Source of the DNA: Coleofasciculus sp. FACHB-1120
GTDB lineage: Bacteria > Cyanobacteriota > Cyanobacteriia > Cyanobacteriales > FACHB-T130
NCBI RefSeq assembly: GCF_014698845.1
Contig: NZ_JACJTV010000005.1
Location: 62,001 to 126,000, forward strand
Reading direction: 5' to 3'
DNA: 64,000 nt
The translations under genes were made by a program, and so were the position numbers. Each line of letters starts with the position of its first letter. The first letter of the stretch is position 1. Under the pieces are notes generated by a model. That model did no database searches. It was not told the DNA's origin and saw nothing but the letters and a program-made list of their open reading frames with translations. Of the stretch, positions 8,001 through 21,306 are shown piece by piece.

Positions 8001-8832
8001 AGTAGACGAAGATACTCGCATTGAAGGCACCGAGAGGGGAGCAGATGCCTATCTGGCTAAGCCATTTAACGACCGGGAACTGTTAGCGTTAGTCCACAAT
8101 TTGCTAGCGCTAAAGGAAAATGAGCGCCGGGTGGTGGAGCTGAATTCTTATCTGACAGAATCGGTGCTGAAGCGCTTTTTACCGCCAATCATGGTGCAGA
8201 AGGCAGCACAAGGCGAACTGAAGTTAGACTTGAGTCCGGAACCCAGGTTAGTGACGGTTTTATTTAGTGACATCGTGGGTTTTACCAGTTTGGCAAATAC
8301 CTTGCGAGCGCGACGAGTGGCTGAGTTGCTCAATGAATACCTGGAAGCCATGACTAAAGCCGTATTTGATAACGGTGGTACGGTGGATAAGTTTATGGGG
8401 GATGCAATTTTAGCGCTGTTTGGTGCCCCAGAGGAGCTGACACCCAACGAGCAGGTACGACGCGCGATCGCAGCGGCGCGGCAAATGCACGCTTCTTTGG
8501 AGCAACTTAATCAGAAATGGTTGGCGGCAGGCATTGTTGGCACGAGCGATCGCGCCGCCGTCCAGTTCCGCTGTGGCATTCACCAAGGCACTGCTGTGGT
8601 GGGAATGTTCGGAGGCGATCAACGGTCGGATTACACCGCTATCGGTCCCAGCGTGAATATTGCCTCGCGCCTTCAAGAAGCTGCGGAACCGAATTGCATC
8701 TTGGTTTCTGCTGCTGTTGCCGATTACCTGGACGAGCAGGAAATCACCAAAGGTAGCCCCCTCAAGCTCAAAGGCATCGATGAAACCGTCCTCACTTTTG
8801 CGGTGGAACTCAAAGAAAGTGCTGGGGACTGA
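5065..8832 (+). CDS. cyaC: CyaC-type hybrid sensor kinase / class III adenylate cyclase
   Basis: 1255 residues from the ATG at 5065, which has AGGAG eight bases upstream. In order: receiver domain (D15, D16, phospho-acceptor D59, K in TKPWD), a first GAF-like domain split by a low-complexity insert at about residues 220-289, a second GAF (about 400-590), a histidine kinase (H617 in SHEFRTP, N box NLLSNAMKFT, G boxes DTGIGI and GSGLGLALV), a second receiver (D903, D904, acceptor D947) and a class III cyclase (metal Asp D1069 and D1113; K1109 fits adenine). This order is that of Anabaena and Spirulina CyaC, in which phosphorelay to the second receiver stimulates cAMP synthesis. All key residues are present. 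The last residue point and Thr in YTAIGPSVNIASR favour ATP over GTP. Soluble; no membrane helix is seen. Confidence 0.93.
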   Translation: MKSQASKKPKILVVDDEPDNLDLLYRTFHREYKVLRADNGPAALEILAHEGDVAVIISDQRMPLMSGTEFLSLTATQYPDIIRIILTGYTDVEDLVEAINAGKVFKYVTKPWDATELKALVQQAMDTHNVLKVRTEELCRTLRRESLLNTVTNTIRSAQYRRGGSPLQQVLQTIVETVGHMLEVSVCILRPFQEDGMADEGFIYQQQDAKGKRQSSGLIISELSPSSGQRTAGLRTEEEGGTAPSSVLLPESSLGEPLGESETGHGQQNEDPHSVLSLQSSVLSQLVWETHDVEVINDVETDERLPGDTPVIRQRLEAMRQADIHSSLVVPLYCQLELMAVLALHQCGQPRVWQDDEIQLVVMVADQAALALSQARAYEQVSRLAQREALVNTITTAIRSSLDPQDIFAAITQQLGQALEVDGCALSLWRREDEFVQCVGLYDGTESLVLDTSGSENSIFGNPSEAFVAKTLELDPHLGNHASPLQAKNPQLPHSVVPIAGNPVLQELLNTQHPVAVHDLDRNPEMNGFDLPLRSPARALLVVPLLSDGQIIGSITLRQTNRPRRWHASEVELAQAVAAQAAIAVTQSRLYQKTRQQAERLLELDRQKTEFFQNVSHEFRTPLTLMLGPLESAVNQHQDMPYDQAAIALRNSRRLLRLVNQLLDIQRLDAGRMQASFRPCNLVEFIETIIEAFRPYCEKKGLQLTLEMKRCKPVYLDLERFDKVIYNLLSNAMKFTEAGGTIAVVVQPAGDHVRIQVSDTGIGIRPEQIPHLFERFRQAEGSVNRSYEGSGLGLALVKELVELHSGQISVESVYGEGSTFTVWLQTGTAHLPLDQVLEVPTEVQSNRAAVELADLEVEEETGDWELLRQDEAAPTLNSLPTESQPVSGSSVNSSVIRTVLVVDDNPDLRAYVSRILLNDGYQVCMARNGNEGFAVAKERRPDLIVTDLMMPFVSGLDMIRMLRDNQELKGTPIILLTAKVDEDTRIEGTERGADAYLAKPFNDRELLALVHNLLALKENERRVVELNSYLTESVLKRFLPPIMVQKAAQGELKLDLSPEPRLVTVLFSDIVGFTSLANTLRARRVAELLNEYLEAMTKAVFDNGGTVDKFMGDAILALFGAPEELTPNEQVRRAIAAARQMHASLEQLNQKWLAAGIVGTSDRAAVQFRCGIHQGTAVVGMFGGDQRSDYTAIGPSVNIASRLQEAAEPNCILVSAAVADYLDEQEITKGSPLKLKGIDETVLTFAVELKESAGD
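5882..5916. repeat. five degenerate 7-bp repeats inside cyaC
   Basis: Read in sevens from 5882 the sequence is ACTCAGT, CCTTAGC, CTTCAGT, CCTCAGT, TCTTAGC: a heptanucleotide array of the kind found in spacers of this window. It lies in frame within the first GAF domain and encodes the low-complexity stretch SVLSLQSSVLSQ. A related diverged patch runs from about 5728 to 5815. Confidence 0.7.
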
Positions 8833-8837
8833 GTAAA

Positions 8838-9518
8838 GTGCTGAGTCCTCAGTCTTCAGCACTGGTCTCTGCTTTGCGCTTGTCGCTGTGGGTGGCGCTG
8901 ATTTCTACCGTCTTCGTTGCGATCGCGGGAGGACTGCTAGGCTACCTCTTGGCACGTTACCGCTTTCCCGGTCGAAACTGGGTGGATGCGATCGTTACGC
9001 TGCCCCTAATTTTGCCGCCGACTGTGGTGGGATTCTATCTGCTGGTTCTCTTTGGACGCCAGGGGTTAATTGGACGTCCTCTCTACGAGGCGACTGGTTG
9101 GACGCCCATTTTTACCTGGCAAGGCGCAGTCTTGGCGGCAAGCATTATGGCGTTACCGCTGATGGTAAAAACGACAAAGGCAGCTTTAGAAAGTGTTGAC
9201 CCCGTTTACTTACAAGCCTCTGCGACATTGGGTCAATCGAATCTGCAAACCCTCTGGCGCGTTTGGTTGCCTTTAGCCTGGAAAGGTATCCTGGCGGGAA
9301 TTGTCCTGAGTTTTGCCCGCGCTTTAGGAGAATTTGGCGCAACTTTAATGATTGCGGGAAATATTCCCGGTGTGACGCAAACGATGCCAATGGCAATCTA
9401 CGAAGCCGTTCAGTCAGGACGCGACAACATCGCCTTGATTTTGGTGGTTATTCTCACTTCGCTGTCTCTGTTCATTCTTTTTTTGACAAATTTTCTGGAA
9501 CGTAGCGGATTCAGGTGA
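8838..9518 (+). CDS. modB: molybdate ABC transporter permease, ModB-like
   Basis: 226 residues, about five membrane helices, with the binding-protein-dependent permease signature: LPLILPPTVVGFYLL, ASIMALPLMVKTTKAALE and ARALGEFGATLMIAGNIPG, the last being the EAA-loop region typical of ModB. The length is normal for the family. It starts with GTG only five bases after the cyaC stop, and its first residues are encoded by a CTGAGTCCTCAG repeat patch, so the true start is uncertain. No modA or modC lies nearby. In cyanobacteria the partners may be encoded elsewhere. Tungstate or another oxyanion cannot be excluded as substrate. Confidence 0.85.
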   Translation: MLSPQSSALVSALRLSLWVALISTVFVAIAGGLLGYLLARYRFPGRNWVDAIVTLPLILPPTVVGFYLLVLFGRQGLIGRPLYEATGWTPIFTWQGAVLAASIMALPLMVKTTKAALESVDPVYLQASATLGQSNLQTLWRVWLPLAWKGILAGIVLSFARALGEFGATLMIAGNIPGVTQTMPMAIYEAVQSGRDNIALILVVILTSLSLFILFLTNFLERSGFR

Positions 9519-9561
9519 ATGTTTACTGTTTCTAACAATAAGAGTCCTTCAAGTTTTGAGA

Positions 9562-10776
9562 ATGGCACTACCAAACCAGCGTCCCAACGATCCGCCTCAG
9601 AGTCCCACTACTCGCCACTTACATCTTGTTAGCGCATCAACTCCACCTCCTTCAGAGAAGCCAGATGCGATCGCCTCCCAGCAGCAGCGAGTCAATGCCC
9701 GGAATCGCTCTACATCGTCCACGGTGTGGAGTATTTATACCCTAATTTCTGTAATTGTCCATGTATTAGGGATGTGGATGTTGCAGAGGTTAATCATGGG
9801 AACTGCCATCGTCGATGTGGGTACGGAACCCATTCCCGTTGATCTGATTACCACCGTTCCCAATGCCGAAGATAGGTTGGAGCCACAAGCGGCACCTCCC
9901 CAACAGAGGCAAGAGCGCGATCGCAATTTTAACGTTTCAGGTGGAAACCCAGTACAGCAGCCGATACCCGCCCAGATTCCCCAGGAAAATTCTCCGGTAA
10001 ATTCTCAACCAAGGATTCAACGCTCTTTCAGAATCCGTTTAAATCCTTTCCCTCAAGCTCAAAACCCTACCGCTAACTCGCCTTCTACCCCGCAAAGACA
10101 GCAGCCGAACTCTGATGTTGTTGCGACCAGACCGAGCATCCCTACACCCGCTCAGCGCCCGCCATTGGTGCCGCAACAACCTCCTGAAACGGGTCGTCCC
10201 TTGGGGTCATCCTCCCAAGATGCAGGAACCCCGGCACCTGCACCGCCATCTCAACCGCAGCCATCATCGTCCCAACCCGTCGAACCAGCCCCAGCTCCTG
10301 TCACCCCTCCGCCAGCTCCTCCTGTACAGGCAAGCCAAGCCCCAGCTCCCATTCCACCAGCACCGCCTGCTGAGGAGCCACAAAGCGCACCGTCACCCGC
10401 ACCCGCAGCACCCGCAGCGCAAGGGAAAGGCGTTGTGGCAACTTTGTTCAATGTCCGCTCTGGTAACGCTGGTGCTGATGAGCCGAACCAATTAGCGGTA
10501 CCGCAGCAAGCGCAGAAACAAATTCCCGACCTTGATTATCCGCTGCTAACTGGGCAAGCTCCCGACGAGCCTATCGTCTTGGAAGTTTTATTGTTGATTG
10601 ATAACACGGGTAAACCGTCAGTTCAGCGAGTGCTGCAAGGAAGTGGAAGTTTAGCCGATTCGCAGTTTGTCAATGAGCTAATTCAAGGCTGGAGATTTCA
10701 ACCCGCTTACATGGGAGGTGGAGCCGTTGACAGCTTGCTGGAAGTGTCTATCCGAGTTTCTCCTCTCTCCCAGTGA
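9562..10776 (+). CDS. TonB-like periplasm-spanning protein
   Basis: 404 residues from the ATG at 9562; a TTG at 9556 is an alternative. The layout is that of TonB-family proteins: a polar cytoplasmic N-terminus, one membrane helix at about 55-77, a long Pro/Gln/Ala-rich linker (about 100-295), and a C-terminal domain (about 325-404) with PIVLEVLLLIDNTGKPSVQR and FVNELIQGWRFQPAYMGGGA, the strand-helix pattern of the TonB C-terminal domain. It probably energises outer-membrane transport, but no ExbB/ExbD or receptor gene is close. The Pro-rich linker produces long open frames in other phases that are not genes. Confidence 0.75.
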   Translation: MALPNQRPNDPPQSPTTRHLHLVSASTPPPSEKPDAIASQQQRVNARNRSTSSTVWSIYTLISVIVHVLGMWMLQRLIMGTAIVDVGTEPIPVDLITTVPNAEDRLEPQAAPPQQRQERDRNFNVSGGNPVQQPIPAQIPQENSPVNSQPRIQRSFRIRLNPFPQAQNPTANSPSTPQRQQPNSDVVATRPSIPTPAQRPPLVPQQPPETGRPLGSSSQDAGTPAPAPPSQPQPSSSQPVEPAPAPVTPPPAPPVQASQAPAPIPPAPPAEEPQSAPSPAPAAPAAQGKGVVATLFNVRSGNAGADEPNQLAVPQQAQKQIPDLDYPLLTGQAPDEPIVLEVLLLIDNTGKPSVQRVLQGSGSLADSQFVNELIQGWRFQPAYMGGGAVDSLLEVSIRVSPLSQ

Positions 10777-10857
10777 AAATAATGCACGCCTCCCCTACTC
10801 AAGCTCTAAAAAATTGTGGTATACTAATCTAGTTATGGTTTGACCATACCTCAATTT

Positions 10858-10928
10858 GCGGGTGTAGTTTAGTGGTAAAACCTCAGCCTTCCAAGCTGAT
10901 GATGCGAGTTCGATTCTCGCCACCCGCT
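10858..10928 (+). tRNA. trnG-UCC: tRNA-Gly, anticodon TCC
   Basis: A 71-nt cloverleaf: acceptor GCGGGTG (10858-10864) pairs with CACCCGC (10921-10927), anticodon stem TCAGC/GCTGA, anticodon TCC at 10890-10892, T-loop GTTCGATTC, discriminator base T at 10928. The CCA end is not encoded. A good -10 box, TATACT, lies at 10820-10825; no clear -35 is seen. The gene marks the left edge of the accessory block that ends near 15.93 kb. Confidence 0.95.
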
Positions 10929-11016
10929 TTTTCTTTTATACAAAATAGTTCAGCCATCGCTTTCTTGTCTTTGAAGCAAAAGCAGGCGATCTCGCTTTCT
11001 TCTTACCATTCTCTTT

Positions 11017-11034
11017 AACCCGTTTTAACGGGTT
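11017..11034. repeat. left-end hairpin of the Y1 element
   Basis: Six-base stem AACCCG/CGGGTT around a TTTTAA loop. Likely the left recognition hairpin for the transposase. Confidence 0.75.
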
Positions 11035-11040
11035 AAAGCT

Positions 11041-11535
11041 TTGAGCCGGAAATTTATTTCCCGGCGACAATCTACGCGATCGCCACTTCCAATCCGAATT
11101 TTTAAACTCATAGCATTTTGGCGCACCTACTACCATCTCATCTGGGCAACGGAATCTCGTCAACCTCTAATTACCCCAGAAAGAGAGGCTGAACTTTACA
11201 GTTATATTATCGGCAAAGCTGATGCAATTGCCTGTATTATTCATGCAATTGGTGGTATCGAAGATCATATTCATATTGTGGCTTCCATTCCACCAAAGTT
11301 ATCAATTGCTGATTTCGTAAAAACCATCAAAGGAAGTAGTGCTTATCATTTGAACCATACTCCATTAGCTTCTGGTTTAGCGTTTAGCTGGCAACATGGA
11401 TATGGAGTGTTTTCATTAGGAGGTAAGCAATTGGATGAAGCGAAGGCTTATGTGAATAATCAAAAGCAACATCATTTACAAGGAACGGTTATTTCAGCTT
11501 TGGAACGGGATGATGAGCCAGGAAGGGGAGCGTAG
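11041..11535 (+). CDS. Y1 (HUH) transposase, IS200/RAYT type
   Basis: The domain begins at AFWRTYYHLIWATESRQPLI and includes the HUH motif in GGIEDHIHIVASIPP and the catalytic Tyr region LDEAKAYVNNQKQHH, so the single-strand nuclease core is complete. The family normally starts with Met directly before A/T-x-W-R-x-Y-Y-H. Here that codon is ATA at 11110, so translation must start upstream, for example at the TTG at 11041 inside the left end, or be impaired. The call is certain for the family and uncertain for the start and activity. The downstream end runs into the right-end repeat. Confidence 0.8.
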   Translation: MSRKFISRRQSTRSPLPIRIFKLIAFWRTYYHLIWATESRQPLITPEREAELYSYIIGKADAIACIIHAIGGIEDHIHIVASIPPKLSIADFVKTIKGSSAYHLNHTPLASGLAFSWQHGYGVFSLGGKQLDEAKAYVNNQKQHHLQGTVISALERDDEPGRGA

Positions 11536-11579
11536 TGAGCGCAGTGAGCGCAGAAATAAATTTCTGGCTCAAAGCTGAA

Positions 11580-11597
11580 ACCCGTTAAAACGGGTTG
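11580..11597. repeat. right-end hairpin of the Y1 element
   Basis: AACCCG/CGGGTT stem around TTAAAA; it is the inverted counterpart of 11017-11034. Confidence 0.75.
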
Positions 11598-11712
11598 GGG
11601 AAATCAAATCAATTTGGGTTGCGATCGCCTCTGGTATTTAAATGTCAGCCAGTAATTTTGCTGCGGCTAGATGTAGTTTTTTAGCCGTGGGTGGGAATAC
11701 TAAATAAGGGAT

Positions 11713-11865
11713 GTGATCGCGCACTGTATCCGAAGTTGAATTATGCGATCGCGTCTCTGCAATGCTTGTAGGACTTGACAAATTACCTTTTTATGAATTA
11801 GTTTTCTAATAAATAGTATTTATGTACTAATCTGGAAGAAAGTGATCGCACATTGTCTCCGAAGT
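11713..11865. repeat. pair of imperfect 24-bp direct repeats
   Basis: The segments 11713-11736 and 11842-11865 match at 21 of 24 positions (GTGATCGC, then CA-TGT, then TCCGAAGT). They are 129 bases apart in otherwise gene-free DNA between the Y1 element and the frameshifted gene. Function unknown; possibly the scar of an old insertion or a dispersed repeat. Confidence 0.5.
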
Positions 11866-11900
11866 ATAGTCATCCATAAGTTGATTAGCTGATGTTCAAT

Positions 11901-12211
11901 ATGTCTCTTGGTTATGCCTGGGAAAAGTTTCATCTATCTGTACTCATACTAGCTGGTGGTCAAGGCAGTTTACAGAAGAGGCTTACACTTACCAACTGGG
12001 ACTACTCAAAGTAGAGCAAGTTCCAGAAGAATTACAGGAAGCGTTTAGCTTGCTAAAAGAAGAATTAAAAACAGTTAAATGTCCTGACAAGCAAGTAAAT
12101 TTTGCGTCAGTTCAAAGAGCTATAGGCACAGAAAAGGCAAAGGAACTAGCCGAAAACATTGTCGAAATATATGACGATATAGCGCAAATATATGGTCGTA
12201 CTAAGCAGTAA
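11901..12211 (+). pseudogene. frameshifted small hypothetical gene
   Basis: From the ATG at 11901 one frame reads MSLGYAWEKFHLSVLILAGG, QGSLQKRL and then soon stops. A second frame takes over near 11975 with EEAYTYQLGLLKVEQVPEEL and runs to the stop at 12209-12211, ending AENIVEIYDDIAQIYGR. I recall a bacterial small-protein family (about 100 residues, helical) that starts MSLG-AWEK and continues through a Y-Y-L segment into the second part, so the two pieces look like one gene broken by a short indel around 11970-11985. Function unknown. It lies 39 bases before the helicase-methyltransferase gene and may once have been co-transcribed with it. Confidence 0.6.
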
Positions 12212-12250
12212 TCCATGAACCTACTCAACGCGAAGTGTAAATTTTGAGTT

Positions 12251-15200
12251 ATGGATAGCCAGAGAAAACCCAACAACTACTGGGATGAATTGACTAATCT
12301 AGAACGCGAACTTATGGCTTTTATTAACGAACACGGTACGCTCGGTTTAATGCCAAGAGCTATAAAATTCGTAAAAGCTGGGCGCAGTGATTTAGCAAAC
12401 GCCATGCGTAAGCATGGTGGATTTCAATCGGTAGCTGAAAAATTAGGGTTAACTTACGCTAGAAAACGACCTGGCTATTGGGATGAATTCACTAATGTTA
12501 AACAAAACCTATTTACCTTTATTGAAAAAAATGGTGTTTTTGGTGTGATGCCAACAAAACAAGAACTCCAAACCGCTGGTTATGGTGACTTAGCAAATGC
12601 CATTGAGGGAGAGTATGGAGGATATGCAGCAGTAGCAAAGCGGTTAGGTTTGACTTGTGCAAAAAGACAGCGAGGTTATGCGGATGACATAAACAATGTC
12701 AAACATGAAATTTTAGCCTTTGTCGAAAAACACGGTACTCCCGGAGTAATGCCGACAGAAGGAGAACTTAAAAAAGCTGGTCAAGGCGCTCTTTTGGGAG
12801 CTGTGAAAAAGCATGGTGGAACTCACAAGGTAGCTGAACTATTAGGGCTAGCTTGTGTGAATAGACAGCGAGGTAGCTTGAATGACTTTGAGTGCTTTGC
12901 AGGGGAGCTTCTAGCTTTTATTGAGAAACAAGGTACTGCCGGAGTAATGCCGACACAAAAAGAACTTGCAAAAGCGAAGAAAACCAGTCTTGCAAGTGCT
13001 ATTGCGAGGCATGGTGGTTTTCCCACTGTGGCTGAACGATTGAAATTGAAGTTTACTCATACAGCAAAGCCAACCGATTACTGGAAAGACTTTGCCAATG
13101 TAGAACGAGAACTTTTCGTCTTCATCGGGAAAAAAGGTACTCCCGGTATGATGCCGGAATTTTATGAACTTGTCCGCGCTGGACACAGTTCCCTCGCAAG
13201 TGCTATTGGAAGGCACGGCGGATTTTCAGCAGTAGCTGAACGTTTAGGGCTGAAGTTGTCGTACACGGCTGGGTGGACAGTAGAAGCTATCCGCAGGTTT
13301 GTTGCCTCTCTAATAAACCATCTCGGAACTCTCACGCCTGCCGAACTCTATCTACTCTTCCAGCAGAATGGGATGCTTCAGAGTACAGGCAGGGGGAAAA
13401 GCTTTGTAAAGGCTCTTGCTACCGGACGATTCCCGCAAGAAGAGATTGAAAAGTTCGTCAATGGTCAGTCGTCAACCGTTGATAAATTCCTGCAAGACAA
13501 GCAGTTGACTCTCGAAGCGCTTGAAACTAGCGGCAATAATGACATCTCTGATAAAGGAAATGTAACCTCCCAGGACAATCTTGACGACCAGATTGACAAG
13601 ACTGTTGAAGCATCCGAAGAAGAGGACGACCTTGACCTTCCGGTTGTCCAGACGCGGGAAGTCCTGGCATCCTTAGATCACTCCGTCGTATCCTCAGCCG
13701 ATGAAGAAGCTGTCGAATTTCTCATCGCATCGGCAAAGGCAAAGATTTGGAAGCACGTCTTTTGGGATGAAGCCGCAGCCGTAGCGCAGGCTCAAAGCTA
13801 CACAGGCGACAGCTACGCCGAAAAAGTTAAATCAGAATTCCTAGACGAATATCATCAAGCCAAGAATCTCCCCATCCCAACTGGCTACACCTTCCGTATT
13901 AACGGCAAAATAGCAGAACCCAACCTCATGCAGCGACTCGCCGCCGTTCAGGTACGCGACAAGAAACGAGTCGGCAATTGGTCGGGAACTGGTGCAGGCA
14001 AAACCCTCTCCGCCGTCCTCGCCAGTCGCGTCATTAACGCTCATCTGACCCTTATCTGCTGTCCTAACAGCGTTGTTGATGGTTGGAAAAAAGCGATTCT
14101 CAACATTTTCCCGGATAGCGCGATCGCTACCAAAACCTTTACACCCGATTGGGCAAAAGCTTTCGCTGACGAAACTGGGTTAGGTGAGGCGCTGAATTCA
14201 AATGCTCACCGTTACATCATCCTGAACTATGAGATGTTCCAGCAGCCAGATTCCGCTGATTGGGTGCGCTCATTGGTGGAAAGTGAGTTAATCGACTTCA
14301 TCGTTATTGATGAAATCCACTACACAAAACAACGCCATGTCGAGAATATATCGCGGCGCAAGCAACTGGTAAGCGCATTCATCACCGCCGCCAGCGATCG
14401 CAACCCAAATCTACACATCATTGGGATGTCCGCAACACCAGTAATTAATAATTTGCAAGAAGGGAAAAGTTTGGTTGAACTGATAACAGGAGTCACCCAC
14501 GACGAACTCGACATCCGCCCAACCATCCCCAACTGCATGAAACTGCACCAGCGACTCGTTTCCCTTGGGATACGCTGGATGCCTGAGTATAACTTGGGTT
14601 ACGAGCAAATCGAGATTCCTGTAGACTGTAGCGAATTTATCGAAGAGATCCGGGCGCTTGGTCAGAATGGCACCCCACTTGAACTTGAGAAAATCCTCAC
14701 TCGCGCCCGATTACCTGACATTCGCCGCCACATTCAACCGAAAACCCTAATTTACACCCATTACATCCAGGGAATCGACCGATTACTGAGAGAAGCGCTA
14801 GAGGAAGACCGATGGAAAGTTGGCTTCTACACAGGCGAAGATAAATCGGGTTTAGAAGGGTTCTTGAATGGCAAAATTGATGTACTCATCGGCTCTAGCG
14901 CCATTGGGACTGGCGTAGATGGTCTACAGCAAGTCTGCAACCAATTAATCGTTAACGTCCTTCCCTGGACTCATGCTGAGTTCGAGCAACTGAAAGGTCG
15001 CATCTACCGCCAAGGACAACGCCAAAACAACGTAAAAATGGTGATTCCGCTAACTTACGCCATCGTAAATGAGCAGCGGTGGTCTTGGTGCGACTCGAAA
15101 ATGCAGCGACTGAGATTTAAAAAGTCTATCGCTGATGCTGCTGTTGACGGTGTAGTTCCAGAGGGATACTTGCGATCGCCTGCCCAAGCCTATCAAGATG

Positions 15201-15910
15201 TAATCGCTTGGCTAGAACGCCTCGAAGCGGGCGTTGTCGAAGTTATCACCCGTCCGAAGATTGTAATTCCGATTCCCGATAACGACCCAGCAGACGTGCA
15301 GCGGCGGTTGCGGCGTTACGGCGACTTTTCCGCCATGAACCGCCACTGGAACCAAACCCAAAGCGAAACTACTCACCAACGCTTACAGGAGAATCCAGAG
15401 GAGTGGGCGAATTACCATACTTTATACGCTGAGTTAAGAAAAAATTGGGCGGTCATCCCTTATCAAGAGATGATTCGTTGGTGCCAACAGCGTAGCGGCT
15501 ACACTATTGGGGACTTCGGTTGTGGTGAGGCAAAACTGGCTGAGGCGGTTTCAGATCGCCATACAGTTTACAGCTTTGACCATGTTGCTGTGAATACGGA
15601 TGTTATCGCTTGCGACATGGCTCACGTTCCCCTTGAGGATGAGAGGCTGGATGTAGCGATTTTCTGCCTGTCACTCATGGGAGCAAATTTCACCGATTAC
15701 CTGCGGGAGGCGAACCGCACTCTGAAACTGGATGGTCATTTGCACATTATCGAAGCAACTTCAAGATTTAGCGATCGCACTCAATTCCAAACTGACCTAG
15801 AGGCTTTAGGATTTGTGGTTGTCAGCGTTCAGGATGTATGGAAATTCACCCATATCCGCGCCTTGAAGACTGAACGTAAACCCCAAGATGGCGTAAAACT
15901 CCACTTCTAG
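12251..15910 (+). CDS. repeat domain - SNF2-like helicase - Rrp8-like methyltransferase fusion
   Basis: 1219 residues in three parts. Residues 10-341 are five tandem repeats of 65-68 residues with the consensus YW-F-N-E-FI-G-GMPT-EL-AG-LA-AI-HGGF-VAE-LGL. After an acidic linker (about 420-470) comes a superfamily 2 helicase of SNF2-like cast: Walker A GTGAGKT at 579-585, DEIH at 687-690, SATP, and HELICc with GTGVDGLQQ and KGRIYRQGQ near 915-921. Residues about 1040-1219 are an AdoMet methyltransferase closely patterned on Rrp8, the rRNA m1A methyltransferase of eukaryotes: GDFGCGEAKLAEAV (1087 on), CDMAHVPLEDE, DVAIFCLSLMGANFTDYL, REANRTLK, SRFSD. No nuclease motif is seen. Functions in DNA or RNA modification, or defence, are inferences. 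It sits in an accessory block next to a tRNA. Confidence 0.85.
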   Translation: MDSQRKPNNYWDELTNLERELMAFINEHGTLGLMPRAIKFVKAGRSDLANAMRKHGGFQSVAEKLGLTYARKRPGYWDEFTNVKQNLFTFIEKNGVFGVMPTKQELQTAGYGDLANAIEGEYGGYAAVAKRLGLTCAKRQRGYADDINNVKHEILAFVEKHGTPGVMPTEGELKKAGQGALLGAVKKHGGTHKVAELLGLACVNRQRGSLNDFECFAGELLAFIEKQGTAGVMPTQKELAKAKKTSLASAIARHGGFPTVAERLKLKFTHTAKPTDYWKDFANVERELFVFIGKKGTPGMMPEFYELVRAGHSSLASAIGRHGGFSAVAERLGLKLSYTAGWTVEAIRRFVASLINHLGTLTPAELYLLFQQNGMLQSTGRGKSFVKALATGRFPQEEIEKFVNGQSSTVDKFLQDKQLTLEALETSGNNDISDKGNVTSQDNLDDQIDKTVEASEEEDDLDLPVVQTREVLASLDHSVVSSADEEAVEFLIASAKAKIWKHVFWDEAAAVAQAQSYTGDSYAEKVKSEFLDEYHQAKNLPIPTGYTFRINGKIAEPNLMQRLAAVQVRDKKRVGNWSGTGAGKTLSAVLASRVINAHLTLICCPNSVVDGWKKAILNIFPDSAIATKTFTPDWAKAFADETGLGEALNSNAHRYIILNYEMFQQPDSADWVRSLVESELIDFIVIDEIHYTKQRHVENISRRKQLVSAFITAASDRNPNLHIIGMSATPVINNLQEGKSLVELITGVTHDELDIRPTIPNCMKLHQRLVSLGIRWMPEYNLGYEQIEIPVDCSEFIEEIRALGQNGTPLELEKILTRARLPDIRRHIQPKTLIYTHYIQGIDRLLREALEEDRWKVGFYTGEDKSGLEGFLNGKIDVLIGSSAIGTGVDGLQQVCNQLIVNVLPWTHAEFEQLKGRIYRQGQRQNNVKMVIPLTYAIVNEQRWSWCDSKMQRLRFKKSIADAAVDGVVPEGYLRSPAQAYQDVIAWLERLEAGVVEVITRPKIVIPIPDNDPADVQRRLRRYGDFSAMNRHWNQTQSETTHQRLQENPEEWANYHTLYAELRKNWAVIPYQEMIRWCQQRSGYTIGDFGCGEAKLAEAVSDRHTVYSFDHVAVNTDVIACDMAHVPLEDERLDVAIFCLSLMGANFTDYLREANRTLKLDGHLHIIEATSRFSDRTQFQTDLEALGFVVVSVQDVWKFTHIRALKTERKPQDGVKLHF

Positions 15911-15916
15911 GGCATT

Positions 15917-15933
15917 GATTCCCGCCACGCACT
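15917..15933. other. imperfect copy of the tRNA-Gly 3' end (att-like)
   Basis: The 17 bases here match the last 17 bases of the tRNA-Gly gene (10912-10928) at 14 positions, including GATTC and CGCCAC. The copy starts six bases after the helicase-methyltransferase stop. It could be a decayed right attachment site of an element that entered at the tRNA. With three mismatches a chance match is also possible, and no integrase lies between. Confidence 0.35.
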
Positions 15934-15973
15934 CCAACAAGCAAGCGTTTCCGTCTCGCCAGCCCAAAAAACA

Positions 15974-15989
15974 AGGCAGGCTCCTGCCT
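15974..15989 (+). terminator. GC-rich hairpin after the helicase-methyltransferase gene
   Basis: AGGCAG, a four-base loop, then CTGCCT. The motif resembles the dispersed GGCAGGC/GCCTGCC hairpins common in cyanobacterial spacers. It may stop the upstream transcript, but no T-run follows. Confidence 0.4.
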
Positions 15990-16098
15990 GCCCTACATAA
16001 CATCAAGAAGAATCCCTGCGGAATTGCCCTGATGATGAGACCCTGCATCGCCACTCAGGAGATACTAGGGCGCTCAGTCTTGAGCAAATACTGTCTCC

Positions 16099-16482
16099 TT
16101 AATCTTTGCCTGTAATGCCTTCCAGAGCCTTCTGAACTTTTTGTTCAACTGAGTCAACGCCTTGCGAATTTTCGTTGGTACTCATCTTCTCAGCATCAGC
16201 GGCTCCTTGAATTTCATTCAGACCCTTGTTGGCTTCCTGTTGAGTTTCCTTAAGCGAATAGGGTTTGTCTAGAACCGCCTTTTGTGATTTTTCCTCAATC
16301 TTCGTCAGATTGGATTCTCCGTCTCTGGGGCTACTGTTGGTGCCGCTATACCCTGCGGGGGTTTTTGTGCTGCTGTAGGCTGGGGTTGCATAGCTGAACA
16401 TTAGTAAAGCGCAAAAACAAGCAGCAATCGCCATACGCACTGGACGTACCCAAGCAGACAGGTTGAAACGGATCGATTTCAT
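16099..16482 (-). CDS. small secreted protein, low-temperature-induced-like
   Basis: 127 residues from the ATG at 16482, preceded by GGAGAGA; the frame extends to 16551 but this start gives a proper signal peptide. Residues 1-37 form a signal sequence with a hydrophobic core (AIAACFCALLMFSYA) and a likely cleavage after AYS. The mature part is polar and helical with LNEIQGAADAEKMST and VEQKVQKALEGITGKD. The pattern recalls small cyanobacterial exported proteins annotated as low-temperature-induced. Actual function unknown; probably periplasmic or thylakoid lumen. Confidence 0.65.
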   Translation of the reverse strand: MKSIRFNLSAWVRPVRMAIAACFCALLMFSYATPAYSSTKTPAGYSGTNSSPRDGESNLTKIEEKSQKAVLDKPYSLKETQQEANKGLNEIQGAADAEKMSTNENSQGVDSVEQKVQKALEGITGKD

Positions 16483-16661
16483 AGAGTATATCTCTCCTAA
16501 TTTGTCGAAATTAGCACTATTAAGATTTGTTGATCGGATCAGACGAAACAACTGCCTGACCGACCTCTCTTATTTGCTCAAATTTTGGAGCTTCTGACAT
16601 CTGTACCTAGGTATACTTGCAATAAATCTTTAGAAAAGGCAATAGAAGTCAATAATTTGGC

Positions 16662-16955
16662 TTAACTCGGCGATAAAAACTGAATTTTGGGTAATAGCGG
16701 GTCTTCAACCATCCCAATTCCCTTAAATTCCCAGCGTTGCAGCAACCCTTTTACTTGGTTTCCAGAGATAGACTCGACAGCGAAGCGATCGCTAACATCT
16801 GGGGCATGGGCGTTGAGATAGCTTAGCGCATCAAAATGTTCGCCAAACATCAACAAATAGCCAGAGCTACTGGTTGAAGAACTTCTATCGGGTTGAGCTA
16901 GAAGATATTGACCATCAGCTCTCGAACGAATTAGGTAATAGACTTGGGAAAACAT
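16662..16955 (-). CDS. small conserved cyanobacterial protein, unknown function
   Basis: 97 residues starting MFSQVYYLIRSRADGQYL, with a central YLLMFGEHFDALSYLNAH and a C-terminal RWEFKGIGMVEDPLLPKIQF. The sequence is compact and soluble, without cysteines, signal peptide or catalytic motif. The tidy ATG start and composition support a gene. Neighbours give no hint of role. Confidence 0.6.
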   Translation of the reverse strand: MFSQVYYLIRSRADGQYLLAQPDRSSSTSSSGYLLMFGEHFDALSYLNAHAPDVSDRFAVESISGNQVKGLLQRWEFKGIGMVEDPLLPKIQFLSPS

Positions 16956-17024
16956 AGAAAATGCAAAGATAATAGGCTAATCCGTAATTGAGAATTGGAC
17001 GGGAAGAAACCATTAGCCACTTCT

Positions 17025-18086
17025 TCATTTAAGATTTTCCAACTTAATTCTCGGATCGGCTACTTTTAGCAACAAATCAGCGATAAGATTGCCGACAATT
17101 AGCATCACTGCCCCCATAATCAAACTTGCCATTACTAAGTAGATATCTTGGATAGTGACTGCCTGTAAAATCAACCGCCCTAATCCGGGCCAATTGAAGA
17201 AAAATTCGGCAATAAATGCTCCACTTAATAAGCTAGCAAACTCAAATCCTAAGAGCGTTATGAGAGGATTAATCGCATTGCGGAGAGCGTGAACATAAAT
17301 CACCCGGTCTTCTGGGAGTCCCTTTGCTCGAGCTGTCTGGATGTAGTCTTGGCGGAGAACATCCAGTAATTCTCCTCTGGTAATTCGCTGCAAACCTGCA
17401 AAACTGGTGACACTCAGCGCCAGGGTGGGCAAAATCATATGCCAACCGATATCTAAAATTTTGCCCACCCAGGATAAATCAGCGTGATTGATGCTGGTTC
17501 TGCCACCGACTGGAAATAGGGGTGACGTGTACTGGGCGAAAATTAGCAACACCAGCGCCGTGATGAAGCTAGGAAAGCCCTGTCCGGCGTAGCTCAGCAC
17601 TTGCAGGAGGCGATCGCTCATGCGATTTTGGTTAACCGCACCAACGATCCCTAGTGGAATCGCGATCGCCCACGTCAGAATCACCGATGCGATCGCCAGT
17701 TCCAATGTCGCTTGGATACGCTCCCACAATAGCGATGACACCGAACGCTGATAGACAAAACTCGTACCAAAATTGCCATAGCGCAAAATCTGCCACAGCC
17801 ATCGTCGGTACTGTTCAATTGCTGGTTTATCCAAACCAAACTGTTGTCTGAGTTCCTCAATTCGTTCCGGGGAAATTTTGGGATTCTGCCTCAAAGTATC
17901 TAAATAATCTCCCGGAGCCATCTGACTAATTGCAAAACTTAGCGTCGAGGCGAGAAACAAAGTCAAAACTGCCTGTAATAGCCGTTTCGCTACGTAGAGA
18001 AAAGTTTCACTCGTGACCAGCCTTTTGAGCCAATTCCCACTAGCCGTTAACCCATTCTGACCTGAAGAATTTCTAGTAGAAGTCAT
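17025..18086 (-). CDS. ABC transporter permease, DppB/OppB family
   Basis: 353 residues with six predicted membrane helices. Family marks are FAISQMAPGDYLDTL near the N-terminus, PERIEELRQQFGLDKP in the first loop, SYAGQGFPSFITALVLL, and the permease signature DYIQTARAKGLPEDRVIYVHALRNAINPL (the EAA loop that contacts the ATPase). It should import peptides, nickel or another solute with a second permease, ATPases and a binding protein. None of these is in the window, as is common for scattered cyanobacterial ABC genes. A heptamer repeat tract precedes it. Confidence 0.88.
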   Translation of the reverse strand: MTSTRNSSGQNGLTASGNWLKRLVTSETFLYVAKRLLQAVLTLFLASTLSFAISQMAPGDYLDTLRQNPKISPERIEELRQQFGLDKPAIEQYRRWLWQILRYGNFGTSFVYQRSVSSLLWERIQATLELAIASVILTWAIAIPLGIVGAVNQNRMSDRLLQVLSYAGQGFPSFITALVLLIFAQYTSPLFPVGGRTSINHADLSWVGKILDIGWHMILPTLALSVTSFAGLQRITRGELLDVLRQDYIQTARAKGLPEDRVIYVHALRNAINPLITLLGFEFASLLSGAFIAEFFFNWPGLGRLILQAVTIQDIYLVMASLIMGAVMLIVGNLIADLLLKVADPRIKLENLK

Positions 18087-18122
18087 GAAATACAGAATCC
18101 CATATCGCCAAATTTTTTGTAG

Positions 18123-18183
18123 TTGCTAATCGCTAATTGTTTAATAGCTGATTAGCCATTAACCATTAGCCATTAGCATTTGC
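18123..18183. repeat. 7-bp tandem repeat tract (CCATTAG type)
   Basis: GCTAATCGCTAAT followed by variants of CCATTAG/CCATTAA in 7-base steps. It lies between the apt stop and the start of the permease gene. Confidence 0.7.
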
Positions 18184-18186
18184 TTC

Positions 18187-18699
18187 CTAATACTCAACTA
18201 GCGTCACAATTGGCACATCAGGAAGTCGTTGACGCCCACCCAAATCTCTTAGCTCGATGATAAATCCAAATCCTACTAAGGTGCAGCCAATTTTCTGTAT
18301 CAGCTCAGCCGTAGCCGTTGCCGTTCCACCCGTCGCGATCAGATCGTCCACAATCAAAACACGACTTCCGGGATGTAGAGCGTCTTGATGCATCTCCAGC
18401 CGATCCATCCCGTACTCTAATTCATACTCAACCGTGTGAACCGCAGCTGGTAGCTTTCCAGGCTTCCGGACAGGGATAAACCCAATTCCCAGTTTGTATG
18501 CCAGAGGTGCCCCAATAATAAAACCCCGCGACTCCATCCCGACGACGTACTCTGGAGACAACTGGGCGCACTTTTCGGTTAAGGTTTCAATGGTGTAGCG
18601 CAGTCCTTCCGGATCGCGCAGTAGCGTCGTTATATCCCGAAACAGAATTCCTGGTTTAGGAAAGTCTGCAATGTCGCGTATCAGAGACTTGAGATCCAT
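18187..18699 (-). CDS. apt: adenine phosphoribosyltransferase
   Basis: 170 residues from the ATG at 18699, giving the standard N-terminus [20 protein letters not shown]. It converts adenine and PRPP to AMP in purine salvage in the cytoplasm. Typical APRT marks are [29 protein letters not shown] and the PRPP loop [17 protein letters not shown] at 114-130. An in-frame extension to 18750 resembles no family sequence. Divergent from the DUF3038 gene. Confidence 0.95.
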
Positions 18700-19099
18700 A
18701 GCAGCTCGTAAAAAGAGGGTTGTGGGTGAACTCGGTATCCGTTGCATCACAGAGGCAGGATCTCCCCCGGATGTGCAAGGATATACCTGGAAAATCGTAC
18801 ACTAGAAGGTTGCATGGTTTTGGAGCATTCCTGACACTCAAGAGCCAGCGGGCGGCTATTGAGGCGAGTGAGTCGTCGTGTCTCTTCGGATTCAAGTACA
18901 CTCAGCGACAAAGTCATTCACCTGCCCGAAGCTTCAATCCCGATCGCGACATCCTGATTTTAGTAAAATCCAGCTGGGCATATAAATAATCGGATAGCAG
19001 ATGGACACAAATGTAACTCTCAAAAGTCATTGATTCCCGTATGCAATTCGTTGTAGCCCATGCAAGCCATCAACCAGTTCAACTGTCCTGCTATTTGGA
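18700..19099. other. divergent spacer between apt and DUF3038 gene
   Basis: About 400 bases, presumably holding the two opposed promoters. I see no gene, repeat or known operator in it. Confidence 0.4.
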
Positions 19100-19723
19100 A
19101 TGAATCTTTCTGTGAGCGTAATGCCATTAAACAGTCCTCCACGAGAGTCAATGCCGCTGATTTTAGACAATCTCCCTGACCCACCAATTTCGTTTAGTGG
19201 GTGTCCGCGTCGAACTCGGCTACAAATTGACCTGATGCTACTAGCAATAGAAGCCCTGGAATTGGGAGGGTCTGAAGCAATGCTGACAGTAGCTAAGGAT
19301 TTGGAACTCCAGGGAATTATCAAAAATCGGGTACACCTATGGCGAATCCGAAGTACCAACCCGCTACGACGATCTTATACACGCCGCTTGCTAACCCTAG
19401 AGGAAGCCAAAGCGATGGTGATCGTAGTCTGCCATCTAGCGCGGCGGTTAACCGTCTTGATCCGGCAGATGCTACTGGCTTATCAACAACTGCGTGACAA
19501 GCAGGTGCCATTAGAACATCACTTTCGCTTGTCTGAGTATTTAGAAAGGTTCCGCGCTCACTTCCGGAGCCGAATGAATCCGCGCCGCGCTGGTGTTGCT
19601 GCCTATAACTCTGATGACAAGTTAAACAATTTGGCTATTGAGCTGTTAAGCGAGCTGCTATTTTGTACGGGAACGTCTGGAATGCAAAGATTTTGGAGCA
19701 GCCTTTTTGATGGAGAAGTGTAA
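19100..19723 (+). CDS. DUF3038 family protein
   Basis: 207 residues; starts at 19121 or 19151 are also possible. The core matches the cyanobacterial DUF3038 pattern: CPRRTRLQIDLMLLAIEALE, LGGSEAMLTVAKDLEL, RVHLWRIRSTNPLRRSYTRR and EEAKAMVIVVCHLARRLTVL. It is predicted soluble and helical. The role is unknown. The next gene encodes DUF4335, and I know these two families as frequent neighbours in cyanobacteria, which suggests a shared job. The spacer to it carries a repeat tract. Confidence 0.8.
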   Translation: MNLSVSVMPLNSPPRESMPLILDNLPDPPISFSGCPRRTRLQIDLMLLAIEALELGGSEAMLTVAKDLELQGIIKNRVHLWRIRSTNPLRRSYTRRLLTLEEAKAMVIVVCHLARRLTVLIRQMLLAYQQLRDKQVPLEHHFRLSEYLERFRAHFRSRMNPRRAGVAAYNSDDKLNNLAIELLSELLFCTGTSGMQRFWSSLFDGEV

Positions 19724-19847
19724 CTTTCATTGAAAAGGGATAATCGGTAATTAAAAATGAGAGTGATGAGCATCCGTGTTGAGTGTTGAGACGAGAACAA
19801 AGTTCTTGAATTGAAAACTCAACCCTCAAACTTAAAACTTTTCCCAG

Positions 19848-19906
19848 ATTACCCGTTACCAATTACCCATTACTTTTTTCCCCATTACCAATTACCAATT
19901 ACCAAC
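19848..19906. repeat. 7-bp tandem repeat tract (ATTACCA type)
   Basis: Runs of ATTACCA, ATTACCC and near variants in 7-base steps, interrupted by a T/C-rich patch at 19874-19883. It ends six bases before the ATG of the DUF4335 gene, so it occupies the place of the ribosome binding site. Confidence 0.8.
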
Positions 19907-19911
19907 TGAAA

Positions 19912-21306
19912 ATGACTATTCGCCGTCCGTACAGTCTGCCTAACTGCACGCTAATCCTAGAAGGGTTAAGCGATGCAGCTGCTGGTCAGGTGGACGCCCG
20001 ACCCTTAATGTCTATCCTGGTTAATGCTGAGTGCCATTTTTCGGGTAAGGAGAAGCCATTAACGGGAGGACGTGACTTTTTTGAAAGCCTGGTAACAGCA
20101 GCCAGCAACTATGCTCAAGAATTCTTAAGTGGGGTACCTCACTCCTATAGTCTGAAAGACAAGCCAAGCTTAGTGCAGTTTCAGAAAATAGATGCCCATC
20201 TGCATCGGTTAATGGTTGAGTCGCCAGGAAATAGTGGCGACTCGACTCATCGTGGTGCGTCCACAACTGCCCAAGCGAGGCAAGTTGATATCACGACAGT
20301 ACAGCTGTTTGATTTGGTGGAGGCGGTGGATCAGTTCCTGGCTGATGGTCGCACGCTGCCAGATATCATGCTTTCAATCGCGCCAGTTCCGAAACGCTAT
20401 GCGAAGGCTGAAGTGCCGGTGGCACAACGCGCCGCACCAGCAGCAGTCGGGGTTACAACTTTGGCATTGGCAGCGATCGCATTTTTCATGGTTCCTCCTC
20501 CCGAAGTCAAGAGATCCGAAGATCCCTTGCTTCAGCCCAACTCCAGCTCGACGACGCCTGCTAGCCCTGTCTCGTCCGAGCAGCCGACAGCAAGCCCAAG
20601 CCCGACAACGTCATCCAGCGTTGATGCTGCTGACTTGGAAAACTTAGTTACAGCCGCACCGGAAATTCTCGATCCGACCCAGTTGTACTTCTTACAACGA
20701 AAACTTCAAAACAACATTTATCAGAAGTGGACGACCCGCCGCCAGTTTCGGCAAGACTTAGTTTATCGGGTGGGGGTCGGCAAAGACGGAGCTGTGGTGG
20801 GTTACAAGCCAGTTAACTCAGCAGCAAGCGATCGCTTAGAAGAAACCCCACTGCCAGAATTGCTCTATATCCCCGCCGCTGGTAGCGACATTACCAAAGA
20901 ACCGCTCGCTCAGTTCCGGGTGGTATTTACGAGGCGAGGCGTCCCGCAAGTGAGTCCCTGGTATGGCTACAAAGAAAAACCCAGTCTGGGTCCAGAAATT
21001 ACCGATCCCACTCAGATAGAGAGTTTAGAAGCTCGGCTTTCCGAACAACTCAAGCAAAATTGGCAAGCCACTCCCAGTTTTCCACGGAGTCTACAGTACC
21101 GTGTCGCCGTAACCAAAGACGGTATCGTTGCCGATTACGAGCCACAGAATCAACCCGCCTTTGATTATGAGGATGAAACTCCCTTGCCTAAACTCTTCCA
21201 GCCGAGCAGCTCGCCAGACGCGGTTCCCCAGGAACCCCTCGCCCAATTCAGAGTCGTGTTCGCACCCAACGGCACCATCGAAGTTAGGTCGTTGCAGAGA
21301 AATTGA
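19912..21306 (+). CDS. DUF4335 family membrane-anchored protein
   Basis: 464 residues. The N-terminus (RRPYSLPNCTLILEGLSDAA, PLMSILVNAECHFSG, FFESLVTAASNYAQEFLSGV) fits DUF4335. A single membrane helix lies at about 177-196 (VGVTTLALAAIAFFMVPPP), followed by a Ser/Pro/Thr-rich linker. The C-terminal half holds two copies of a domain of about 110 residues, each containing DPTQ...L...L, W, YRVAV/GV-KDG-V-Y-P, ETPLP-L and EPLAQFRVVF. Function unknown. It is probably translated with the upstream DUF3038 gene. Confidence 0.78.
   Translation: MTIRRPYSLPNCTLILEGLSDAAAGQVDARPLMSILVNAECHFSGKEKPLTGGRDFFESLVTAASNYAQEFLSGVPHSYSLKDKPSLVQFQKIDAHLHRLMVESPGNSGDSTHRGASTTAQARQVDITTVQLFDLVEAVDQFLADGRTLPDIMLSIAPVPKRYAKAEVPVAQRAAPAAVGVTTLALAAIAFFMVPPPEVKRSEDPLLQPNSSSTTPASPVSSEQPTASPSPTTSSSVDAADLENLVTAAPEILDPTQLYFLQRKLQNNIYQKWTTRRQFRQDLVYRVGVGKDGAVVGYKPVNSAASDRLEETPLPELLYIPAAGSDITKEPLAQFRVVFTRRGVPQVSPWYGYKEKPSLGPEITDPTQIESLEARLSEQLKQNWQATPSFPRSLQYRVAVTKDGIVADYEPQNQPAFDYEDETPLPKLFQPSSSPDAVPQEPLAQFRVVFAPNGTIEVRSLQRN

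What the first reader, a model, noticed from the sequence alone, without database searches (positions are those of the whole stretch)
12251..15910. SNF2-like helicase fused to an Rrp8-like methyltransferase in a cyanobacterium
Seen: one 1219-residue frame joins five N-terminal repeats, an SF2 helicase (GTGAGKT, DEIH, SATP, GRIYRQGQ) and a C-terminal domain that follows eukaryotic Rrp8 almost block by block (DFGCG, CDMA-VPLEDE, DVA-FCLSLMG-N, EANR-LK, SRF-D). Known: Rrp8 makes m1A in large-subunit rRNA of eukaryotes; helicase-methyltransferase fusions in bacteria are mostly restriction or defence proteins (for example ISP enzymes, DISARM pairs) with DNA methylases, not Rrp8. Inference: either an RNA-modifying remodeller or a new defence-type protein acting on RNA or DNA. 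Its place beside a tRNA, a transposase and a broken gene marks it as accessory.
Basis: partly seen in the sequence, partly recalled or inferred. Interest (0 to 1): 0.88.

Follow-up and report, generated by a model that had tools for sequence, protein, structure and literature searches.

The report
Swappable-repeat Snf2 motor with Rrp8-like methyltransferase
One bacterial protein joins an interchangeable set of probable DNA-reading repeats, a Snf2-type DNA motor and a methyltransferase otherwise known from eukaryotic ribosome maturation; it turns up rarely in bacteria, archaea, plasmids and phages, and two sister species carry the same gene with entirely different reading repeats.

Summary
ORF 12251-15910 is intact (1219 aa): five repeats, a Snf2-type motor and an Rrp8-type methyltransferase (PF05148 E 1.4e-51; predicted fold matches human nucleomethylin, Z 29.8, rmsd 1.6 A). 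It is no local artefact: I aligned 41 motor+methyltransferase cores from bacteria, archaea, plasmids and virus contigs. All 24 motif residues checked are identical in 41 of 41; core dN/dS against the sister species is 0.22. The gene is rare (6 of 386 cyanobacteria drawn).

What varies is the N-terminus: DUF4379, DUF723/CapR-like or INT_rpt repeats, or the window's own HTH-like repeats. In the sister genome flanks and core are collinear (91-93%), but exactly the upstream DNA plus repeats (11722-13270) is replaced, by seven zinc-finger repeats. No nuclease fold and no constant partner gene were seen; nearby defence genes were no richer than in a control.

Best reading: a stand-alone accessory conflict protein. 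Repeats choose a DNA target, the motor moves on duplex DNA, the Rrp8-like domain methylates a base there (N1-adenine expected, not shown). Architecture is near certain; function is inferred. My open-access searches found no paper on the fusion.

The parts
12251..15910 (+). whole gene: repeats + Snf2-type motor + Rrp8-like methyltransferase, 1219 aa
12278..13267 (+). five HTH-like repeats (residues 10-339; about 12278-12475, 12476-12673, 12674-12874, 12875-13075, 13076-13267), 37-51% identical to each other
   Evidence: only sub-cut-off HTH_1, YdaS and ARID matches; model all helical but pLDDT 65 and no PDB match better than E 1.2
11722..13270 (+). exchanged cassette: upstream DNA plus repeats; not homologous in the sister genome G001, while 8001-11721 (93.4%) and 13271-20000 (91.1%) are collinear
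   Evidence: the sister has seven DUF4379 repeats here
13268..13864 (+). helical linker between repeats and motor (residues 340-538), partly low confidence
   Evidence: secondary structure of model
13865..15172 (+). Snf2-type motor (residues about 539-974); GTGAGKT 13985-14005, DEIH 14309-14320, SATP 14429-14440, QLKGRIYRQGQ 14987-15019
   Evidence: INO80 8atf_G Z 21.9, ISW1, CSB, Chd1, Sulfolobus 1z63; motif residues 41 of 41
15293..15907 (+). Rrp8-like (Methyltransf_8) methyltransferase (residues 1015-1219); DFGCG 15512-15526, CDMAHVPLEDE 15611-15643, FCLSLMG 15662-15682, EANR 15707-15718
   Evidence: 2zfu Z 29.8, 1.6 A, 200 residues, 36% identity
11041..11535 (+). IS200-like Y1 transposase upstream, also present in the sister genome
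10858..10928 (+). tRNA-Gly (tcc)

Best explanation
A stand-alone accessory protein of genetic conflict, carried by hosts, plasmids and phages. Step 1 (inferred): an exchangeable N-terminal repeat array binds a DNA target. Step 2 (shown as fold and intact motifs, not as activity): a Snf2-type motor moves along duplex DNA from that place. Step 3 (fold and active site shown, substrate inferred): the Rrp8-like domain transfers a methyl group to a base in the DNA or in RNA being made there; N1 of adenine is expected from Rrp8. Such a mark blocks Watson-Crick pairing, so the methylation itself could be the blow, which would explain why no nuclease is present. Cassette exchange changes the target while the machine is kept.
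For: Both catalytic sites identical in 41 of 41 aligned cores (24 motif residues); core dN/dS 0.22, motor 0.19, methyltransferase 0.26. Motor fold closest to INO80, ISW1, CSB, Chd1 and Sulfolobus Snf2. Methyltransferase fold = nucleomethylin; of 17 residues invariant in my 26-row alignment that fall inside the human alignment, 16 are the same in human RRP8 (my own reading). N-terminus alternates between DUF4379, DUF723/CapR-like, INT_rpt and the window's repeats; at least 5 changes on the core tree (my labels) and a clean swap between sister species. PMC10448857 (passages) regards DUF723/CapR Zn-fingers as modular DNA-binding parts of phage homing proteins whose exchange would change the target. 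Present on plasmids and in virus contigs, several with phage terminase. Patchy and often decayed.
Against: No defence enrichment over control, no constant partner. Nothing here shows the substrate; Rrp8 acts on rRNA, and none of the repeats was tested for binding. The window's own repeat type has no known fold. Five relatives keep repeats and motor without the methyltransferase (L052, L058, L068, L069, L073), so methylation is not always needed. No match among 50,697 named phage records.
Confidence: 0.4

Rival explanations
1. Self-protection: a solitary sequence-chosen DNA modification enzyme that shields the host, plasmid or phage from restriction or marks DNA for regulation; the motor spreads or directs the mark.
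For: Carried by plasmids and virus contigs; no nuclease fold; exchangeable recognition part.
Against: The methyltransferase is Rrp8-like, not one of the usual DNA amino-methyltransferase families, and the NPPY-type motif of those (recalled) is not where it would be; a base-pair-blocking N1 methyl would be a poor protective mark.
Confidence: 0.2
2. Transcription-coupled RNA modifier: a RapA/Mot1/CSB-like remodeller that follows RNA polymerase on chosen genes and methylates nascent RNA, for example to silence invading transcripts.
For: Mot1 and CSB are among the closest motor folds; the methyltransferase is related to an RNA enzyme; DNA-binding repeats would pick the locus.
Against: No RNA-polymerase-binding part recognised; no RNA-binding domain over cut-off in the Pfam scans of the proteins tried.
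Confidence: 0.17
3. A ribosome-directed Rrp8 equivalent that remodels and methylates large-subunit rRNA, as in eukaryotes.
For: 36% identity and 1.6 A fold match to nucleomethylin, which makes m1A in 28S rRNA (PMC6085284, abstract).
Against: Rare and patchy (6 of 386 cyanobacteria, 7 of 232 in the phylum of L064, 1 of 296 and 1 of 279 elsewhere, each including the seed genome), on plasmids and phages, with swapped N-termini: not how a housekeeping rRNA enzyme behaves.
Confidence: 0.1
4. A selfish homing-like mobile gene without benefit to its carrier, using homing-type DNA-binding repeats.
For: DUF723, DUF4379 and INT_rpt repeats occur in homing or integration proteins (PMC10448857, PMC12350094, passages); different sites in two genera; homing endonuclease families near the virus copies.
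Against: No nuclease, integrase or transposase domain in the protein; both catalytic sites are kept over great distances.
Confidence: 0.08

Closest known systems
Eukaryotic Rrp8 / nucleomethylin (Pfam Methyltransf_8, PDB 2zfu)
   Same: Methyltransferase fold, motifs and 16 of 17 compared invariant residues
   Different: Fused behind a Snf2 motor with exchangeable repeats; prokaryotic, patchy, on plasmids and phages
Snf2/Swi2 motors (INO80, ISW1, CSB, Chd1, Mot1, Sulfolobus 1z63)
   Same: Two-lobed motor fold, Z 18-22
   Different: 15-20% identity; no chromatin or TBP parts; ends in a methyltransferase
CapR / DUF723 / DUF4379 and INT_rpt repeat proteins (homing endonucleases, phage satellites)
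   Same: Same kind of repeat array at the N-terminus of most relatives
   Different: Nuclease replaced by motor plus methyltransferase; the window's own repeats belong to none of these
Type I and type ISP restriction-modification enzymes
   Same: Works like them in outline: SF2 motor, methyltransferase and an exchangeable target-recognition part
   Different: No nuclease seen; methyltransferase of another family; recognition part is a repeat array at the N-terminus
DISARM DrmD, BREX BrxH and PLD-helicase defence proteins
   Same: Weak similarity in the second motor lobe (best E 3.9e-10 to PbeA, 1.9e-8 to DrmD; NCBIfam far below cut-offs)
   Different: No DISARM or BREX partner genes recurring beside it; different C-terminal half

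Membership tests
Methyltransf_8 (Rrp8) domain family | Profile score over the curated cut-off | tested here: met
   176 bits against 27; note that the family search also rings over cut-off in 7 of 14 control genomes, so the cut-off alone is loose; 2zfu match is the stronger proof
Methyltransf_8 (Rrp8) domain family | N1-methyladenosine activity on large-subunit rRNA | not testable with these tools
   needs biochemistry
Snf2/Swi2 motor family | Snf2 two-lobe fold with intact Walker A, DExH, SAT and motif VI | tested here: met
   by sequence SNF2-rel_dom is under its cut-off
Snf2/Swi2 motor family | ATP-driven movement on duplex DNA | not testable with these tools
   needs biochemistry
Type ISP / type I restriction-modification | Nuclease domain | tested here: not met
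   No nuclease family in Pfam scan; the parts outside motor and methyltransferase are helical in the model, though 340-464 and 976-988 are partly low confidence and were not folded alone
Type ISP / type I restriction-modification | DNA amino-methyltransferase family (N6_Mtase, Eco57I or similar) | tested here: not met
   Methyltransf_8, then Methyltransf_11
DISARM / BREX | Helicase over the family cut-off and partner genes | tested here: not met
   NCBIfam DrmD 34.7 bits against 610; no recurring partner
Anti-phage defence gene | Sits among defence genes more often than chance | tested here: inconclusive
   44 PADLOC families among 142 near genes, 58 among 142 far genes; crude, counts families not genes
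CapR/DUF723/DUF4379/INT_rpt repeat proteins | Repeat profile over cut-off, in the window protein | tested here: not met
   none for the window's repeats; met in relatives L022, L056, L058, L067, L025, L037, L078, L061

The most novel reading that the evidence does not exclude
A nuclease-free, re-targetable interference machine: a repeat array reads a DNA sequence, a Snf2 motor runs from it, and an Rrp8-type domain puts Watson-Crick-blocking N1-methyladenine into the target DNA or its transcripts, disabling an invader chemically instead of cutting it. The same mobile prokaryotic and viral family could be the kin or the source of the eukaryotic rRNA enzyme Rrp8.
Probability: 0.2. Interest if true: 0.95.

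Novelty: categorically new. Interest (0 to 1): 0.8.

Why it matters
Each domain is known; the combination, its spread over bacteria, archaea, plasmids and phages, and the replacement of the whole recognition part at one chromosomal site between sister species were not found in print by my searches (open-access full texts only). If the methyltransferase keeps Rrp8 chemistry, this would be a way to silence nucleic acid by blocking base pairing. It also gives a natural experiment: one core, several recognition arrays. And it supplies prokaryotic relatives for a pan-eukaryotic ribosome enzyme. 'Categorically new' refers to the architecture; the function is not shown.

Tried and rejected
Frameshift or assembly artefact: rejected, 41 aligned cores. 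Restriction enzyme: no nuclease recognised. Conserved partner gene: none; the clusters in more than three loci are response regulators / histidine kinases (10 loci), a mixed zinc-finger/HTH repeat group (5) and HNH proteins (4). Fold of the window's repeats: single-sequence model, pLDDT 65, best PDB E 1.2, so no conclusion. Giant-virus origin: capsid profile PF16903 rang nowhere, also not in the controls, so no conclusion; phage terminase PF03237 over cut-off in 4 of 13 virus records. Stand-alone Rrp8-like methyltransferase in prokaryotes: no independent lineage seen, but methyltransferase-only frames exist: G036 244 aa and G005 357 aa (78% and 92% identical to the window's C-terminal part), a 156-aa fragment in L051's genome, a 194-aa frame with a stop and a split copy in the phylum of L064, and virus contigs L100 and L101, where no motor is found upstream in any frame beyond the last part in L101. 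I read these as decayed copies; that they work alone is not excluded. Named phages: no match.

The tree is the quick method; N-terminal labels are mine, three of them (L054, L064, L081) from adjacent frames, two rows (L053, L060) unlabelled. An earlier count said that all virus loci with enough sequence are fused; one search corrects this to 16 of 19 (L094 cut by the contig end, L100 and L101 short).
Full report
What is there. The frame at 12251-15910 encodes 1219 residues without a stop. Residues 10-339 are five repeats, 37-51% identical. Residues about 539-974 are a two-lobed motor and 1015-1219 a class I methyltransferase. Methyltransf_8 scores 176 bits (E 1.4e-51; cut-off 27), ResIII and Helicase_C pass their cut-offs, SNF2-rel_dom does not. 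The PDB sequence search gives one match at E 0.01 or better, human nucleomethylin 2zfu (E 2.8e-34; 2.7e-53 with the family profile).

Structure. AlphaFold2 on residues 340-1219 with 39 aligned relatives: pLDDT 80, pTM 0.65; low confidence in parts of the linker. VIA-align: methyltransferase against 2zfu Z 29.8, rmsd 1.6 A, 200 residues, 36% identity; motor against INO80 8atf_G Z 21.9, rmsd 2.9 A, 379 residues, 17% identity, then ISW1, SRCAP, CSB, Chd1 and Sulfolobus Snf2 (Foldseek). Of the 17 residues invariant in 26 family methyltransferases that lie inside the human alignment, 16 are the same in human RRP8; the exception is W1052, F in human. This last comparison I made by eye.

Spread. Of those 19, 16 hold motor and methyltransferase in one frame over nearly the whole profile, L094 is cut by the contig end, L100 and L101 are short. 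Several of these contigs are tailed-phage-like: terminase over cut-off in 4 of 13; phage-type families near the gene (53 neighbours scanned).

Rarity. With the methyltransferase profile at E 1e-12: 2 of 146 and 6 of 386 cyanobacterial genomes, 1 of 296 in the phylum of L056, 1 of 279 in that of L034, 7 of 232 in that of L064; the seed genome is counted in each, and not all first-look candidates were scored. Among 16 genomes already known to hold a relative, 14 have a match, L069's and L073's have none.

Conservation. In the 41-row alignment A3 the 24 motif residues that I checked are identical in 41 of 41. The 41 rows are those with an unbroken core; one near-copy (L082) and one Rhodococcus copy (L020) were left out, as were fragments. 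Between window and sister core dN 0.085, dS 0.38, ratio 0.22; motor 0.19, methyltransferase 0.26. Five relatives end after the motor and have no methyltransferase in the DNA held (L052, L058, L068, L069, L073). Broken copies are common (L048, L059, L070, L071).

The exchangeable part. By inspection and Pfam the N-termini are: DUF4379 zinc fingers (20 of 41 rows), INT_rpt (14), DUF723/CapR-like zinc fingers (4), the window's repeats (1), none or unknown (2). Pfam support over cut-off was obtained for those rows that I scanned, L077 and L057 staying under it. The labels need at least 5 changes on the core tree. The window's repeats were otherwise found, at 44% identity, only in a protein beside a recombinase on an Allocoleopsis plasmid, with two short marginal matches in virus contigs. 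Virus contigs L095 and L104 appear to mix zinc-finger and INT_rpt repeats in one protein (by eye).

The swap. Window 8001-20000 against the same-genus genome G001: 93.4% over 8001-11721 and 91.1% over 13271-20000; the 1.5 kb between has no counterpart (the two segments, 1551 and 2140 bases, share nothing better than E 0.12). The break falls at residue 341, where conservation of the core begins. The sister has seven DUF4379 repeats there (E 1.3e-146). In the other genus (G002, G005) only decayed pieces are left, at another site: both match the window up to 15923, 13 bases past the stop, and then share a flank of their own; G002 also keeps 11621-11873. So the core was inherited or moved as a unit, and the recognition part was replaced.

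Neighbourhood. No gene family recurs as a partner. In some loci the gene directly downstream is suggestive: an Mrr-type restriction endonuclease in L057, a T5orf172 protein in L081; an FRG protein lies upstream in L046, and a DUF4379 protein with a weak REase match near L037; others scanned had no family. PADLOC matches are not enriched over distant genes (44 against 58 families). In L054 two adjacent upstream frames consist of INT_rpt repeats and in L081 one of zinc-finger repeats, as if the array could also be supplied as a separate protein, or be split by frameshift.

How it probably works. Shown: domain order, folds, conservation, cassette exchange. From established knowledge: Snf2 motors move on duplex DNA; Rrp8 and nucleomethylin make m1A in large-subunit rRNA (PMC6085284, abstract); DUF723/CapR zinc fingers are treated as modular DNA-binding parts whose exchange would change targets (PMC10448857, passages; likewise CapR-like/DUF4379/DUF723 repeats with a Vsr-like nuclease in PMC12350094, passage). 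Inferred: the array binds a target, the motor moves from it, the methyltransferase modifies a base there. The jumbo-phage survey PMC7824862 has no 'Rrp8' or 'rRNA methyl' in its text, and PMC12839542 on BREX no 'Rrp8' or 'DUF4379' (passages only).

Novelty. Full-text searches for the fusion or its parts brought no description; these cover open-licence papers only. Public annotation calls the plasmid relatives 'zinc-ribbon domain-containing protein'.

Noticed in passing
window 11017-11060 and 11553-11596: Inverted 44-base copies (93% identical) flank the Y1 transposase.
   Followed up: partly
L054 7942-9877 and 12558-13088: Beside the Nitrosopumilus copy, two upstream frames are made of INT_rpt repeats and a downstream one holds one more repeat: recognition arrays perhaps supplied in trans.
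   Followed up: partly
L052, L058, L068, L069, L073: Relatives with repeats and motor but no methyltransferase.
   Followed up: partly
L021 4320-5816 (Allocoleopsis plasmid pMIC7113.04): Protein with the window's repeat type, annotated as terminase ATPase subunit, next to a recombinase and near caspase-family genes.
   Followed up: no
L023 8402-11734 (G001 contig C22): The sister species has a second, distant copy (core about 42% identical) with INT_rpt-like repeats.
   Followed up: partly
L076 (113.6-kb virus contig) and L040 (Microcystis): Phage and host copies are sisters on the core tree; a terminase match lies in the same phage contig near the gene.
   Followed up: partly
L037 11922-14150: 743-aa protein with six DUF4379 repeats and a weak REase match near a Simkaniaceae copy.
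   Followed up: no
L018 9411-17933 (Crinalium plasmid pCRI9333.01): The plasmid copy lies beside a polyketide-synthase gene cluster.
   Followed up: no
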